Both the position numbers and the translations under genes were made by a program. A DNA stretch of 49,317 bases from Spirogloea muscicola (lineage: Eukaryota; Streptophyta; Zygnematophyceae; Spirogloeales; Spirogloeaceae): positions 626,971-676,287 of the forward strand of contig WELB01000021.1 of NCBI GenBank assembly GCA_009602725.1. Reading direction: 5' to 3'. Shown here piece after piece: positions 21,420 to 48,265 of the stretch. Positions within the stretch are counted from its first letter, which is position 1; every line of letters starts with the position of its first letter. Below the pieces are notes generated by a model that was not told the origin of the DNA, did not search any database, and saw nothing but the letters and a program-made list of their open reading frames with translations.

Positions 21420-21451
21420 CCTAAACCCTAACCCTACACCCTACACCCTAT
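21420..21451. repeat. Interstitial telomere-like array (CCCTAAA type)
   Basis: Four to five degenerate units on the plus strand: CCTAAA, CCCTAA, CCCTACA, CCCTACA, CCCTATG. The unit is that of plant-type telomeres. It lies about 150 bases after the stop of the candidate gene. The strand sense is opposite to the array at 24309-24359. Confidence 0.8.
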
Positions 21452-23940: not shown

Positions 23941-25724
23941 ATGGGCAACCCCCTCAGCAAACCAGCAGAGACTGTAGGTAGAGCTATCATCGACTCTGCT
24001 GACAAGCTCAATGGAACAGCCTCATGGGCCGCTGGTAAGGCTGTCTGCTTGCTTGCTTCCAAGAGGTTGCCAAAAACAACATGTCAATCTGCTTATACAC
24101 TGCCTCCACCTCTGGCTCGCAGGCAACTTGATGACACATTGATAACTCAAACGAGCTGCCCTCACCGTGCAGCTCGAGTCGGCGAGTCAGCGGAAGCAGC
24201 AAAAGCTACAATGGCACAGATGAAAGTTGCGGCCAATGCCATTTCCAGAGCAGCCACTCATGCTGAAGTAGCAGCAGATTCAGCTCAGGTTGCTTGCGCC
24301 AAGGCCGGGTTTAGGGTTTAGAGTTTTAGGGTTTAGGGTTTGGGGGTTTAAAGTTTAGGCGATGCAAGCAATGCCGTAGAAATATCAGCCGTACAACAGC
24401 ATCATTGGTGGGAGAGCTTGGACCAAAGCTTAGCACGACGCTCGACCAAGCATCATCAATTCCTGGTGCTCTTCAAGATTCTGTCAACCAGATCACGCCA
24501 CAGGCAGCCTCGACTCCGGAGACGGTCCAAAAATGCGTCCAGATCTTGACACCCACTGCACAAAGTGCGCTGGACTCGTTGAGTTTCACAAGCAAGGCAG
24601 TGGGACAGAACATTCCAGCCTTGATGCAAAGCTGTCGTTGATTTGGCGAGCCTGATTTTGCTTGTTGAGTAAAGTGCTGCTTGCTGCATCATCGGCAAAC
24701 TTGATCTAACACACAGGCTGTGCTCATACCAGGCACAAACTGCTGCTTGAAGCAACAGAAAATCATGAAGCTCACAACCTGTAATTTACAATGTACCTGT
24801 ATAGTCCTACCTAGCCTTGGACGAACTTTCAACTCCGCTTTATGAGCATTTATTGACTAATGGCCATGTTTCTCTTCAGCTGTAGCAATCGTTGCAGGCG
24901 CTGCAGCTCTGGCCAGTCCAGCTCAGAATCTGAAAAGAATTGCTGTGAACTCTACAGAACTGGTTGCTACAAAAGAGGCCAGCCTGGTGTTCCGAGCAGC
25001 TGAAGGAACTTCCAAAAGAGCAGGCGGTTTCCTCAGGGGTTGGAAGCATGATCAGCATGGTGTATTCATCCCTGCCACTGAAGATGCATACTTAATGTGC
25101 TGCGACGATTTCACCAAAGAATTGCAAGAGCGTCACTTGGCAAGGTAAGTTGCAACATCCTGAGGAATGGCACACTGCCACCTCACTGAATGCATATCAA
25201 CCACTTATGCTCTACTTTCAAAATAATGCTTCACCCAGCAGTCCTGCCTCGCTTCTCCACTCTGCTTAAAGGCTTTGCAGTGATAGAGTTTAGCTGACAT
25301 CCAAGACAAGCTTCAGTGACGCTTTCTGTCGTCAGGCTGGGGATGGAGGTTTTGAAGATATGAATGAAAAAGTCTCATATGCTGCAGGACACCAAGGCAC
25401 GCAATAGAGAAGGTCAAGGCGATTCGCGAAAGTGGTGTGCTGCTAAAAGGGATGGAGGTTGTCTACCATCGCGACGTCATGAGTTTTACCTGTGATAAAG
25501 ACATTATTGAGAGGCCAGAAGGTATGGGTCTCTTTATCATGTGTGGCAGCACTGACTTGCATGGACAGCCTTACATCAAGTTGAAGGGGGTGATCTGTGA
25601 CATGGACAACTCCGGTGCACCAATGGGAAAGGTATGAATCTAGGATGGCAACCTCAACATGTGGCACTAGAGGTAATCTTCGACTTGCTGACCTTGGTTG
25701 CAGTGCCCGAATACACAAGTTTAG
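23941..25724 (+). CDS. Unrecognised intron-containing gene; putative N-myristoylated, Ala-rich helical protein
   Basis: Exons proposed: 23941-24034, 24173-24308, 24359-24636, 24880-25144, 25388-25631 and 25704-25724. The start MGNPLSKP fits the N-myristoylation rule (Gly2, Ser6), suggesting membrane association. Exon 2 is an Ala-rich helical segment (AEAAKATMAQMKVAANAIS), followed by a hydrophobic AIVAGAAALAS stretch and a compact domain (AIEKVKAIRESGVLL, then KGMEVVYHRDV) ending near DNSGAPMGK. Junctions use GT-AG with frame kept (G|GTAAGG, AG|GTAAGT, AAG|GTATGA), and the second copy at 46714-48265 has the same introns. Exon 2 is broken by telomere repeats (24309-24359); removing 24309-24358 as a GT-AG segment restores the later frame. 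The last short exon ends CPNTQV-stop; one base less would open into further sequence, so the end is uncertain. Family not recognised. Confidence 0.6.
24309..24359. repeat. 51-bp interstitial telomere repeat (TTTAGGG type) inside an exon
   Basis: About seven imperfect TTTAGGG units (TTTAGGG, TTTAGAG, TTTTAGGG, TTTAGGG, TTTGGGGG, TTTAAAG, TTTAGG). The second copy of the gene reads straight through at this point (AAGGCTGGCGAAGG near 47127), so the block was inserted here after the duplication, or lost exactly there. Read through, it brings an in-frame TAG within 5 codons. Confidence 0.93.
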
Positions 25725-28395: not shown

Positions 28396-29953
28396 CTAGC
28401 TACACATGTCGAAGAAGGCTAGGAGACCAAGTGATGCAATGCCATTGTCTGACTCTGCTATTTCTCCAGAAGGCAGACGCCACTGATGTTGCGAGTGCAA
28501 GACATCTGCCTGTACTGAATCTGCTTCTGACTGGGTGCTGAAGAAAGAATCGACAGCCTCAAAGTCCGGGGAGAGATTTAGGGACTTGCTGGAGCTCGGT
28601 GTAGAACTGTAGTCCTCCAAGTCCTCTGCCCCTGAGCCTGCTGCAGCGACATCCGCATAGCCTGCACCCTGTCCCTCGAAGATTGCTGCGATGTCCGTGC
28701 TGCGATGTACGTCAGCCATATGTGTGTATTGCTCACATATAATCCATGGTTTCACGGGCACAGAATTTGATGCTTTTGAAATTGCTGGTGCAGGCCCCAA
28801 AGTCTGATGAGCTCCGAGAGGCGTAAGTGCGGCAGTGCTTGGTCCTCCTTTAGGTGGCGGATCAGGGTCTCTTGGACCGATGTCGATGGGTGGGCCCCCA
28901 CCCTGGCTGATAAGAGAGATCGTGATTGGTTTTGGTGGGGCAACGTGGTTATGATAGCCTATATAAGTGACATCAAACACATTCTTGTCGTCCTTAGACA
29001 CCTCCACTTTCTTCTTTGCCAGGCATGGCTGGTCAGAATCCTCCAGACTGCAGCGGAAGTAATTGCGAGGATTTGGCGAGCTCTTGATGGGCTTCCTGCC
29101 GTATTTGCGCCAACGCCAACCATCGTCAGGAATTTGCTTCTCGTCGAAAGGCTCTGGGACTATCACGTGTATCTGCTCAATGGGCACCTTCGGCCTGCAG
29201 AAGTTGGACTTTGAGGTGTTAGTACACATGTGGATTAGAAAGTTGCCACAGATAGCCGCTGACCGTTGCAGCACGTGCTTTGTTTGATGACATCCAAAGT
29301 CGATGCAAAGAGACAGACTTGTCTTGTCGGTGTTGATGAGCTCAATTCTCGTGGTGAGCAAGCTCATGAAATGTGGCTCATTGCAATTGACCACACACAA
29401 ATGCATGTAGCACTCACTTTCTTGAAGATTGGCGACTGCCATCCATCCTGTCGCCGTAGGAGCATCTGGTCCGCTTGGCGCCGGCACTTTTTGCAGCACG
29501 CTGGTTGAGAATATCAGCTCCCTTGTCGCAGTATGATTCATTCGACGCCCTCTTGGCACTGGCTTGCATACGGACATCCTCCTCCATCTTTAAGGGTAGC
29601 AAGGCTGAGTATCCATCGAGGTAAGCCGTGCTCTTCTCACTGGAGCTTGTTGATGCAGACATTGGGCTTGGGGGTGCCGTATGTGGGCCAAGGGCGTTGC
29701 TGCTGCATGCTCCCAGATGGACCCCTCGATCAAGGGCGAGAGAGGGAGAAGAAGCATGAGTACTGGCAACTCCTAGATGGCCTGCAAGGACACGGAACTC
29801 CAGTAACTGCTCTTGGGCTTGCAGCAATGTTTTCGTGAGATCCACCAGCTGCCCCTGCCCAGTGCTTGCTGTACTCGTGGCTGCTAATCCCTCGAAAGTT
29901 CTGTAACAAGTAGAAGAAGACGAAAAGTTGAAGGAACCGCGAGCGCCAGTCAT
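28396..29953 (-). CDS. WRKY-family transcription factor, two exons
   Basis: A sequence-specific DNA-binding protein that would act in the nucleus, normally on W-box promoters. Exon 1 is 29953-29418 and exon 2 29194-28396, giving 444 residues; the junction completes a Lys codon (AA|G). The first in-frame ATG is at 29953; a stop lies upstream. Exon 1 has a leucine-rich heptad segment (LVDLTKTLLQAQEQLL, about 40-55) and a basic stretch (AKSAGAKRTR) near its end. The single WRKY domain spans about 202-263: DDGWRWRKYGRK, PNPRNYFRC, then Cys, then HNH. The core is WRKYGRK, not WRKYGQK. The zinc spacing is C-x8-C-x23-H-x-H, between group III (C-x7-C, H-x-C) and groups I/II (H-x-H). The domain carries no intron. 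The C-terminus is Pro/Gly-rich, then Ser/acidic (GAEDLEDYSSTPSSSKSLNL), as in activation regions. The Q to R change may alter W-box preference (inference). Confidence 0.92.
29195..29417 (-). other. Intron of the WRKY gene with consensus branch point
   Basis: The donor is A|GTGAGTG and the acceptor TTCTGCAG. A perfect TACTAAC motif lies at about 29218-29224, some 23 bases before the acceptor. Without splicing, exon 1 stops at the donor (GTGA). The 223-base intron happens to be open in the frame of exon 2, which makes an unspliced reading of 393 codons look falsely continuous. Confidence 0.88.
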
Positions 29954-31145: not shown

Positions 31146-32196
31146 AATGCTGATCATCTTGACATTCAATCGACTCGCATGGTCTGAGGTGGCGGCTAAT
31201 GCATATCCTCGATCTGGTGGCGCGACCAACATTGCATGGAGAATTAAGAGGCAAGCTACCACGCCTTGCATGTTCAATGGACCTGCACCAACCAGACCGC
31301 TTATTAAATGTAGGGAGTGAAAGGATCTGACAAAGGACGCAATCCACAGTTTACACGGAGCCCAATTTCACTCTTATTTAGCAAAGCGAGAATTTTCCTG
31401 TGAGGCTGGCTCTTGTCGACTGCAGCGTTGACTTGAACTTCATAAATGCTGGCCCTGATGATCCCTTGCCGACTGCGGCAGTAAAGAAGCAAGTCATGTG
31501 CCACAAATGGCCCCCATTACGCCCAACATGCATAGCCTATTGCATACGCAGATGTTCACAGTCAAGGATCTGATGGTTAAGTCAAGTTGATGCACGACGA
31601 CATGAGAAGGATGCTTGCTGTCACAGCCAAGGGCGTCCCCTCAGGAACCGCACATGGAGCCTTACGTTCATGATGGCACGTTGCTGTCTATGCTCGCATT
31701 TACGAGACTAACACTGAAGAAAGGCGTGTTATGATGTAGTTAGTGAAAACAAAATAACAGTCCTCTTGCACTTTTGGAAACTGCGTATATTGGAAGAAGG
31801 GAAGGCTACAGTGGCCAACTACAAGAACAAGCACATCTGTTGACGTACATTAACCACTGCATATTGACCCGCTCAGTATCTACGAATCCGCACAAAGAGT
31901 TCGCTCATTGATGTCTGAAAACCGGATGGAAACTCCAAGCCTTTCTGCCACCAACCAGAGCTCGCCCAGCCTTCTGGTGCATAGCACGCTACAAACAGGC
32001 CGACACACGCCCGCGCAAGATCAACACTTATGCAGCTGGCAAGCCCATCTCGGCCAGAAGCAAATCTGCATGTCCTGCATAGCCTAGTTTGGCAATTAAT
32101 TCAAGGAGGGTGTAGAGCTGAGGACCTATACAGCAAAGATATCGACTGAAGCCGAGTGGGAAAACGCCGAGCGAGCCCGAAGAGAGCGAGAAAGGG
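31146..32196. other. Unassigned region
   Basis: No gene or repeat that I can support. Confidence 0.35.
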
Positions 32197-32822
<626 letters not shown>

Positions 32823-46159: not shown

Positions 46160-48256
46160 CGCACGCCGCGACGCTTGCTGACCAACTCTTGCTGAGTACC
46201 TCGAAGTCCGCGGAACTTCCAGCTGGGTGCACACCAGGTCGTGGCGCAGCCGCCCAGAGCGTGGCGGCGGCGGCCCGCCACCGCCACCGCCAAACACCAC
46301 CACCCGGCCCCCCACCGCCAGTTAGTCGCAAAGACCTACCTAGAGGCTGCGAAAAGCATGCAAAACAAGGACTGAGTTGCTGGAGGCTTCATCTTGGCGA
46401 GGGTGCCGCCACAGGACGGGGGCAGCTAAGAAGTGGGCAGTGTGAAGGGGCTGATTTCACATCGCCCTTGTGCCATTGTCTTACTTATTCAGCCGGCTAG
46501 GTCTAGCGCACCTTCTATTGCAGTATTCTTGAATGTTGTGTACCGCGACCTGTGGAGCTCGGGTAGTCAAAAGGCAGGCAGAAGCCTCGATGTGCCCTCA
46601 ACTCACACCGTCTTCACGACTTCTCGCGAGGCCTCCACTGAGCGCCTGACCAAGTGTGGCTGGTGAGCCTTCTCACAGCCTGAGGATTCTGAGTACCTAG
46701 CGCACTCTTCCAAGGGGCAACCCCTTAGCAGACCAGCGGAGACTGTAGGTAGAGAATCAACGACTCTGCTGACCAGCTCAACGAAACAGCGCAGACTGTA
46801 CGTAGAGCTTTCATCGACTCTGCTGACAAACTCAACGGAGCAGCTTCATGGGCCGCTGGTAAGGCTGTCTGCTTTCTTCATTCACAGAGGTTGCCCAGTC
46901 AACAAATCAATTTGCAAATGCAATGCCTCCACCTTTGGCTCCTAGGCCACTTGGCAGCACATCTACCACTCACGCGAGCTGCCCTTCTTGTGCAGCTCGA
47001 GTCGGGGAATCAGCGGAAGCAGCAAAAGCTACCATGGCACAGATGAATGTTGCGGCCAATGCCATTACCAGTGCAGCCACTCATGTTGAAGAAGCAGCAT
47101 ATTCGGCTCAGGTTGCTTGCACCAAGGCTGGCGAAGGAAGCAATGCCATAGAAAAACTAGCCAACACAACAGCATCATTGGTGGGAGAGCTTGGACCGAG
47201 GCTTAGTACAACATCGATCAAGCATCGTTAACTCTTGGTGCTATTCAAGATTCTGTCAGCGAGATCACACCACGGGCCGCCTCGACTCTGGAGACGGTCC
47301 AAAAGACTGTCCAAGAATTGACGCCCACTGAACAAAGTGCACTGCACTCGTTGAGTGCCACAAGCGAGGCAGTGGGACAAAACATTCCAGCCTTGGTGCA
47401 AAGCTGTCAGGTCATTAGTTCGGCAAGCCTGCTTTTGCTTGTTGACCCAAGTGTTGCTCGCTGCATTATCGGCACGCCTGGTCTGAATTGCAGGCTGTGT
47501 TTATACCAAGCACAAACTGCTATTTGAAGCAACGGAAAATCATGAATCTCACAATCTGTATGGTCCTAGCCTTGGACGAACTTTTCTATCCGCTTTATCG
47601 GTGTTTCGTGACTGATTTATTTGTCAGTGTTTCTTGACTGATTGCTATATTTCTCTTCAGGCTGCAGCTGTAGCAAGTTTTGCAGGCGCTGCAGCTCTGG
47701 CTATTACAGCTAAGAGTCTGAAAACAATTGCTGTCAACTCTACAAGAATGGTTGCTACGAAAGAGGCCAGCCTGGTCTTCCGAGCAGCTGATAGAGTTTC
47801 CAACAGAGCAGGCGCCACTTCACCAGAAAAATGCAAGAGCGTCACTTGGCCATGTAAGTAGCAACATCTCAAGAATGGCACACTGCCACCTCACACAGTG
47901 CGATTCAACCATTCGTGCTGTGCTTTCAGTACAATGCACTACCCAGCAGTCCTGGCCCGCTTCTCAACTCTATGTGAAGGCTTTGCAGCACTCCAGTCAA
48001 GCTGACATTCCAATACAAGCTTCAGTGACTTTTTTCTGTCGTCAGGCTGGGCCATGAGACATTGAAGATGTGAATGGAAATTGTGTGTCATATGCTGCAG
48101 GACACCAAAGCATGCAATAGAGAAAGTCAAGGCAATGCGCGAAAGTGGTGTGCTGCTAAAAGGGAAGGAGGTTGTCTACCATTGCGATGTCATTGTTGCC
48201 ACCTGTGATGAAGACATCATTGAGATGCCAGAAGGGATGGGTCGCTTTATTGTCTG
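46160..48256 (+). repeat. Segmental duplication, copy 2
   Basis: Partner of 23155-25520, same orientation, about 23 kb downstream. It lacks the tail insertion and the telomere block found in copy 1 and is interrupted at about 48256 by a family-C repeat. Confidence 0.9.
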
Positions 48257-48265
48257 GCGAGCTTG
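46714..48265 (+). pseudogene. Decayed second copy of the putative N-myristoylated protein gene
   Basis: The start ATG of copy 1 is AGG here (46713-46715 region: CCAAGGGGCAACCCC), with one base lost soon after. A segment of about 60 bases in exon 1 is duplicated (ACTCTGCTGAC occurs twice). Exon 2 (46996-47410) has a one-base loss near 47213 leading to TAA at 47229. Exon 3 (47661-47853) lacks about 90 bases that encode the RGWKHDQHGVFIPATEDA part in copy 1. Exon 4 (48101 on) still reads TPKHAIEKVKAMRESGVLLK and stops at TGA 48263, in foreign sequence. Introns and most splice sites are kept. No intact product is possible, although transcription is not excluded. Confidence 0.85.

What the first reader, a model, noticed from the sequence alone, without database searches (positions are those of the whole stretch)
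24309..24359. Telomere repeats inserted into an exon, with an empty-site control in the window
A 51-bp block of about seven TTTAGGG-type units sits in exon 2 of the gene at 23941. The duplicated copy at about 47127 reads through without it, and the join in copy 1 (GCCGG|...|CGATGC) leaves the flanks otherwise colinear. This fits telomerase-assisted or capture-type repair of a double-strand break and is a clean before/after pair inside one contig.
Basis: partly seen in the sequence, partly recalled or inferred. Interest (0 to 1): 0.85.

Follow-up and report, generated by a model that had tools for sequence, protein, structure and literature searches.

The report
Telomere repeats inserted in broken gene
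A 51-base scrap of chromosome-end sequence was dropped into one copy of a multi-copy gene in a photosynthetic eukaryote, most likely when a DNA break was mended; this kind of scar is well known from mammals, and similar blocks are common in this genome.

Summary
Window 24309-24359 is a 51-bp block of seven TTTAGGG-type units, three exact, with abrupt joins in exon 2 of a gene copy. The polarity question is settled within this genome: the gene is a family of 16 copies, and 11 of 11 other copies that hold the site lack the block (four more copies do not hold the site). It is a gain in the window copy, not a loss in copy 2. The insert keeps the phase but brings three in-frame stops; further lesions suggest a decaying copy. 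It differs from pure TTTAGGG by 4 substitutions in 51 bp, matching the copy's terminal branch (0.078 per site), so early insertion of a pure array would fit. The genome (153 Mb, photosynthetic, apparently triplicated) has about 3 internal two-unit arrays per Mb. Elsewhere, one block (C16) is empty in two homologs; another (C198, C12) is missing from a third (C9), direction open. This is a short interstitial telomeric sequence left by double-strand-break repair, a class described in mammals. Telomerase synthesis seems likelier than fragment capture; neither is shown.

The parts
24309..24359 (+). 51-bp TTTAGGG-type insert (G-rich strand on +); can slide left by up to 2 bases
24307..24308 (+). 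GG at the left edge, in register with the telomere unit and repeated at the right edge (24358-24359): 2-base overlap
23941..24034 (+). exon 1 of the window gene copy (ATG to GCTG|GTAAGG)
   Evidence: gene model from copy L013
24173..24636 (+). exon 2, interrupted by the insert; three in-frame stops (TAG, TAG, TAA) come with the insert
24880..25144 (+). exon 3 of the window copy; its acceptor side has lost 7 bp relative to other copies
   Evidence: (there printed one base short)
25388..25672 (+). exon 4 of the window copy, 1-bp deletion near its end
46715..48258 (+). copy 2 of the gene (degraded, 3' part missing), empty at the site (about 47127-47134)
21420..21450 (-). second, shorter telomere-type block (units TTTAGG, TTAGGG, TGTAGGG); no match covers it, so no empty homolog was seen

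Best explanation
A double-strand break fell between GG and CGATGC in exon 2 of this gene copy. The 3' end ending in GG was extended with TTTAGGG repeats, most likely by telomerase using GG as a two-base primer in register, and the extended end was joined to the other side by end joining without loss of flanking bases. The result is a short interstitial telomeric sequence. It put stops into the reading frame and has since gathered substitutions at about the copy's own rate. Shown: insertion and its direction, exact joins, TTTAGGG arrays at some contig ends, telomerase reverse transcriptase genes in the genome. Inferred: the break, the use of telomerase, the joining step.
For: Empty site in 11 of 11 other copies that hold it. 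TTTAGGG arrays at the starts of C10 and C22 and near the end of C112. Three telomerase reverse transcriptase loci. A 31-base core of the block matches only itself exactly; 5 other places match at 3 mismatches, 4 of them TTTTAGGG-bearing arrays closer to the pure repeat. 4 substitutions in 51 bp against a terminal branch of 0.078 per column: P(4 or more) 0.56 if inserted at the start of the branch. A block on C16 is missing cleanly from both homologs C175 and C38. [quoted passage not shown] in the mammalian papers 67-80% of informative loci have one or more.
Against: Two bases in register can arise by chance. The donor search allowed no insertions or deletions, so it could not have found a donor that differs by one base in length, such as the block on C75. 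Variant units recur: 34 places (this one included) of TTTAGAGTTTN{0,2}AGGG against 3 control matches, and L055 on C75 has TTTAGAG and TTTGGGG in the same order (by eye, not tested against chance); a shared degenerate source would also explain this. Of 17 other contig starts fetched, none shows telomere repeats in its first 400 bases, but 6 of the 17 read only N. The telomerase RNA is unknown here, so no template test was made.
Confidence: 0.62

Rival explanations
1. Capture: a fragment of a subtelomere or of an older internal telomere block was ligated into, or copied into, the break; telomerase was not involved at this locus.
For: Variant units recur in other blocks, and L055 (C75) carries TTTAGAG and TTTGGGG in the same order; the end of C29 has variant units too. 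The donor search missed donors with indels.
Against: No other place matches the 31-base core within 2 substitutions. The deviations are no more than expected from decay of a pure array.
Confidence: 0.3
2. The block is ancestral and was lost precisely from copy 2.
For: None found beyond the two-copy comparison itself.
Against: 11 of 11 other copies that hold the site lack it, including the relatives on C361, C9, C394 and C370 that group with the window copy in the tree; it would need many identical losses.
Confidence: 0.01
3. The insert works as a spliced mini-intron: GT at 24309 and AG at 24357-24358 give a 50-bp GT...AG stretch, and with the 1-bp deletion downstream the exon-2 frame becomes open again.
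For: The spliced model is open through exon 2 and, if the next donor and acceptor and the exon-4 donor have also moved, through exons 1-4.
Against: 2 of 12 GT...AG pairs of 20 bp or more in and around the block open exon 2, so one fit is not surprising. The model needs three moved splice sites; with the old exon-4 donor it meets stops; a later exon has an uncompensated +1 shift. No clear pyrimidine tract (by eye). Changes on this branch do not depart from neutral (13 of 38 synonymous, p 0.21), and the lack of nonsense changes is not telling (P 0.28 for none in 38).
Confidence: 0.05
4. Assembly error.
For: Not tested with reads. 6 of the 23 arrays listed run up to an N, so some arrays in this assembly are incomplete.
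Against: No N near this block; one other block is shared by three homologous places (C100, C262, C3).
Confidence: 0.02

Closest known systems
Short interstitial telomeric sequences of primates, rodents and horse, inserted at double-strand breaks (PMC2246262, passages seen; PMC7215372, outline with abstract and section 2.5 read)
   Same: Short array of the species' telomere unit, abrupt joins, empty homologous locus, one-step insertion, bases in register at the break, 'no modification of the flanks' class (23% rodents, 16% primates, about 17% horse in those papers)
   Different: TTTAGGG in a photosynthetic eukaryote; empty sites are gene copies in the same genome rather than orthologs of other species; inside a coding exon by the family's gene model
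Telomeric repeats flanked by retrotranscribed telomerase RNA (PMC2246262, passages seen; PMC8537989, search listing only)
   Same: Telomere repeats at a mended break
   Different: No extra bases at this insert; the telomerase RNA of this organism is unknown
Plant telo boxes / short interstitial telomere motifs (PMC3022908, outline with abstract and passages seen)
   Same: Plant-type telomere unit at an internal site; those authors also propose telomerase acting on free 3' ends
   Different: Telo boxes are short motifs preferentially in 5' gene regions; here seven units in an exon, in a gene copy that looks broken
Interstitial telomere repeats of Chlamydomonas reinhardtii (PMC6549138, passages seen)
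   Same: Internal telomere repeats in a green alga; one band absent from a divergent strain
   Different: In the passages seen, possibly ascribed to end-to-end fusion and not resolved to an insertion site; unit TTTTAGGG

Membership tests
Short interstitial telomeric sequence from break repair | Internal tandem array of telomere-type units | tested here: met
Short interstitial telomeric sequence from break repair | Unit equals the organism's telomere unit | tested here: met
   TTTAGGG arrays at the starts of C10 and C22 and near the end of C112; 0 of 17 other contig starts show one, 6 of them all N
Short interstitial telomeric sequence from break repair | Related locus without the array, flanks colinear | tested here: met
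   11 of 11 other copies with the site
Short interstitial telomeric sequence from break repair | One-step insertion, no intermediate array in relatives | tested here: met
   none of the 11 aligned copies has any part of the array
[quoted passage not shown]
   GG, 2 bases; one locus has little power
Telomerase-RNA-flanked insertion | Flank copied from telomerase RNA | not testable with these tools
   telomerase RNA not known here; no extra bases at the joins
Telomere-fusion relic | Head-to-head arrays | tested here: not met
   single orientation, 51 bp
Plant telo box | Short motif in a promoter or 5' UTR | tested here: not met
   seven units in exon 2
Spliceosomal intron | Removed from RNA | not testable with these tools
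   no RNA data; a 50-bp GT...AG stretch exists

The most novel reading that the evidence does not exclude
Telomere repair as a source of ready-made introns: a run of TTTAGGG units carries many GT and AG steps, and here the 50-bp stretch 24309-24358 would be spliced out, with a downstream 1-bp deletion and moved splice sites keeping exons 1-4 open, so that the copy still makes a protein with a changed C-terminus.
Probability: 0.05. Interest if true: 0.65.

Novelty: new member of a known kind. Interest (0 to 1): 0.3.

Why it matters
The single insert is ordinary. What is useful is the setting: an apparently triplicated genome with roughly 480 (extrapolated) internal two-unit telomere arrays, where homologous copies can act as built-in empty-site controls. 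That would let one measure how often breaks are mended with telomere repeats, whether bases in register are in excess, and how fast such arrays decay, outside mammals.

Tried and rejected
A WRKY domain in 1 of 10 window frames scanned, 68 light-harvesting matches and TTTAGGG point to a green alga or plant (inference).

Function of the gene family: the 374-aa exon 1-4 product of copy L013 gave no Pfam family over its cut-off (7 weak ones up to E 1, best 0.0085) and no solved structure up to E 0.1.

Selection test: the window branch has 13 of 38 changes synonymous, neutral expectation 0.27 (p 0.21); the nine other copies lie at 0.21-0.39 (none below p 0.05), so it decides nothing.

Decay against error-prone synthesis: 4 substitutions fit decay, but a late insertion of an already variant array cannot be excluded. 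The two one-base insertions and the substitutions were counted by eye.

Homologous sets elsewhere: six of the 43 blocks printed, chosen by eye, were searched and five sets aligned. C16 is filled, C175 and C38 empty (an insertion by parsimony). C198 and C12 are filled, C9 lacks the stretch; a loss in C9 is as possible as a gain. C100/C262/C3 and C114/C399 are filled in all members. C13/C87/C65 is not resolved. C56/C232 was judged filled from match lengths alone.

Literature: no title or start of abstract listed (20 of 67 shown; 11 of 11; 15 of 145; 12 of 496; 12 of 12; 12 of 16) describes break-repair insertion of telomere repeats with empty-site controls in an alga; full texts were not read for this.

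Full report
Observation. Window 24309-24359 holds 51 bp made of seven TTTAGGG-type units (three exact). TRF finds it. In 152.9 kb not fetched for telomere repeats (the window, family copies, telomerase-gene loci, contig starts), a wrap-around alignment to TTTAGGG found two blocks, both in the window (24307-24359, score 37; 21420-21450 on the minus strand, score 24); four control motifs found 0, 0, 0 and 1, the one being the same block.

Direction of the change. The gene is a family. A search of the window's own genome (153.1 Mb, 471 contigs) gave 16 copies with the window's, plus distant partial matches on C26, C18 and C16 that do not cover the site. Eleven copies other than the window's hold the site; all 11 lack the block and read straight across it. 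Four more copies (C421, C1, C23:804k, C21:945k) do not hold the site. The insert was therefore gained in the window copy. In a tree of 12 copies the window copy groups with those on C361, C9, C394 and C370.

Joins. The ancestral ...GCYGGCGATGC... becomes ...GCCGG, 51 bp, CGATGC.... No flanking base is lost; GG stands at both edges, so the insert can slide by two bases. One substitution (T to C at 24306) lies next to the left edge in the window copy only.

Effect on the gene. The frame comes from a copy on C25 (L013: exons 1-4 open, 374 codons). Seven of the 11 other copies have an open exon 2, although two of these (C361, C9) have lost the ATG and the GT of the exon-2 donor. In the window copy the insert keeps the length in phase but brings TAG, TAG and TAA. 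The copy also has a 1-bp deletion in exon 2, a 5-bp deletion that removes the exon-2 donor, a 7-bp loss at the next acceptor, a 1-bp deletion near the end of exon 4 and a 1-bp insertion in a later exon. It is most simply a decaying copy. A spliced reading exists: a 50-bp GT...AG stretch whose removal, with three moved splice sites, leaves exons 1-4 open. 2 of 12 GT...AG pairs would open exon 2, and a later exon stays shifted, so I give this little weight.

Age. The window copy's terminal branch is 0.078 changes per column (tree built with the block left out). The block differs from pure repeats by four substitutions in 51 bp, 0.078 per site, and two one-base insertions (counted by eye). P(4 or more) is 0.56 if inserted at the start of the branch, 0.14 at its middle, 0.02 with a quarter of the branch left. 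A pure array inserted early is enough; a variant array inserted later is not excluded.

Genome setting. The 21-mer of three units occurs 439+313 times (overlapping matches counted) with 0+0 control matches, the 14-mer GTTTAGGGTTTAGG 741+645 times with 2+0. On contigs C1-C14, the part of the capped list that is complete, the 14-mer forms 70 clusters in 22.0 Mb, one of them within 5 kb of a contig end: 3.1 internal per Mb, about 480 for the genome by extrapolation. Of 23 arrays in the 20 loci, picked because they matched, 20 are 20-90 bp long; 6 of the 23 run up to an N. TTTAGGG arrays stand at the starts of C10 and C22 and near the ends of C112 and C29; 0 of 17 other contig starts has one in its first 400 bases, 6 of them being all N. 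Three telomerase reverse transcriptase loci are present, 88-91% identical to each other.

Other filled and empty sites. Six other blocks, chosen by eye from 43, were used as one query, and homologous stretches of five were aligned. C16 is filled while C175 and C38 are empty, an insertion by parsimony. C198 and C12 are filled while C9 lacks the stretch; with no fourth copy the direction is open. C100, C262 and C3 all carry the block; C114 and C399 both carry one; C13/C87/C65 is unresolved. Telomere-repeat insertion has thus happened more than once in this genome (window and C16), and other blocks are older than the duplications.

Mechanism. Published mammalian cases show one-step insertion at breaks, 67-80% of informative loci with bases in register at the break, and part of them without change of the flanks (PMC2246262, passages; PMC7215372, section 2.5). 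This locus fits: GG in register, no loss, no extra bases. I favour telomerase synthesis over capture because a 31-base core of the block has no other match within 2 substitutions and the block needs no variant source. Against this, allowed no indels; TTTAGAGTTTN{0,2}AGGG occurs at 34 places, this one included (control 3), many of them in degenerate telomere-like surroundings by eye; and the block on C75 has two of the same variants in the same order. Capture keeps about 0.3.

Known or new. It is a short interstitial telomeric sequence: a new member of a known kind. No title or abstract start listed describes an algal case with empty-site controls; these lists were in part capped and the texts were not read for this.

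Noticed in passing
G000 C8:566243, C39:399826, C42:560545 (L065-L067): Three telomerase reverse transcriptase loci, 88-91% identical over most of 4.5 kb including flanks. The flanks of 4 of 6 searched telomere blocks also turn up in threes, the other 2 in twos, and some light-harvesting genes look similar: this points to a triplicated genome (hybrid or polyploid).
   Followed up: partly
L045 5784-6319 (C27:905784-906319): Two telomere arrays head to head (TTTAGGG then CCCTAAA) with a single N between: a chromosome-fusion relic or a scaffold join.
   Followed up: no
L101 (C103 near 43278): A telomere block lies between two direct repeats of about 40 bp (by eye), as if a widely staggered break had been filled in.
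   Followed up: no
window 21420-21450: A second, more degenerate telomere block (TGTAGGG, TTAGGG units) 2.9 kb from the first.
   Followed up: partly
window 32181-32822: A 642-bp AG dinucleotide run (TRF, 95% matches).
   Followed up: no
L055 (C75:256568-256613): Telomere block with TTTAGAG and TTTGGGG in the same order as the window block (by eye).
   Followed up: partly
window 28396-29577, minus strand: Open frame with a WRKY DNA-binding domain (Pfam E 1.1e-21).
   Followed up: no
C21:697-945k, C25, C361, C370, C9, C421, C394, C23, C1: The gene family lies in multi-kb duplicated units, several on C21 itself, with a downstream stretch 83-90% identical between several units.
   Followed up: no
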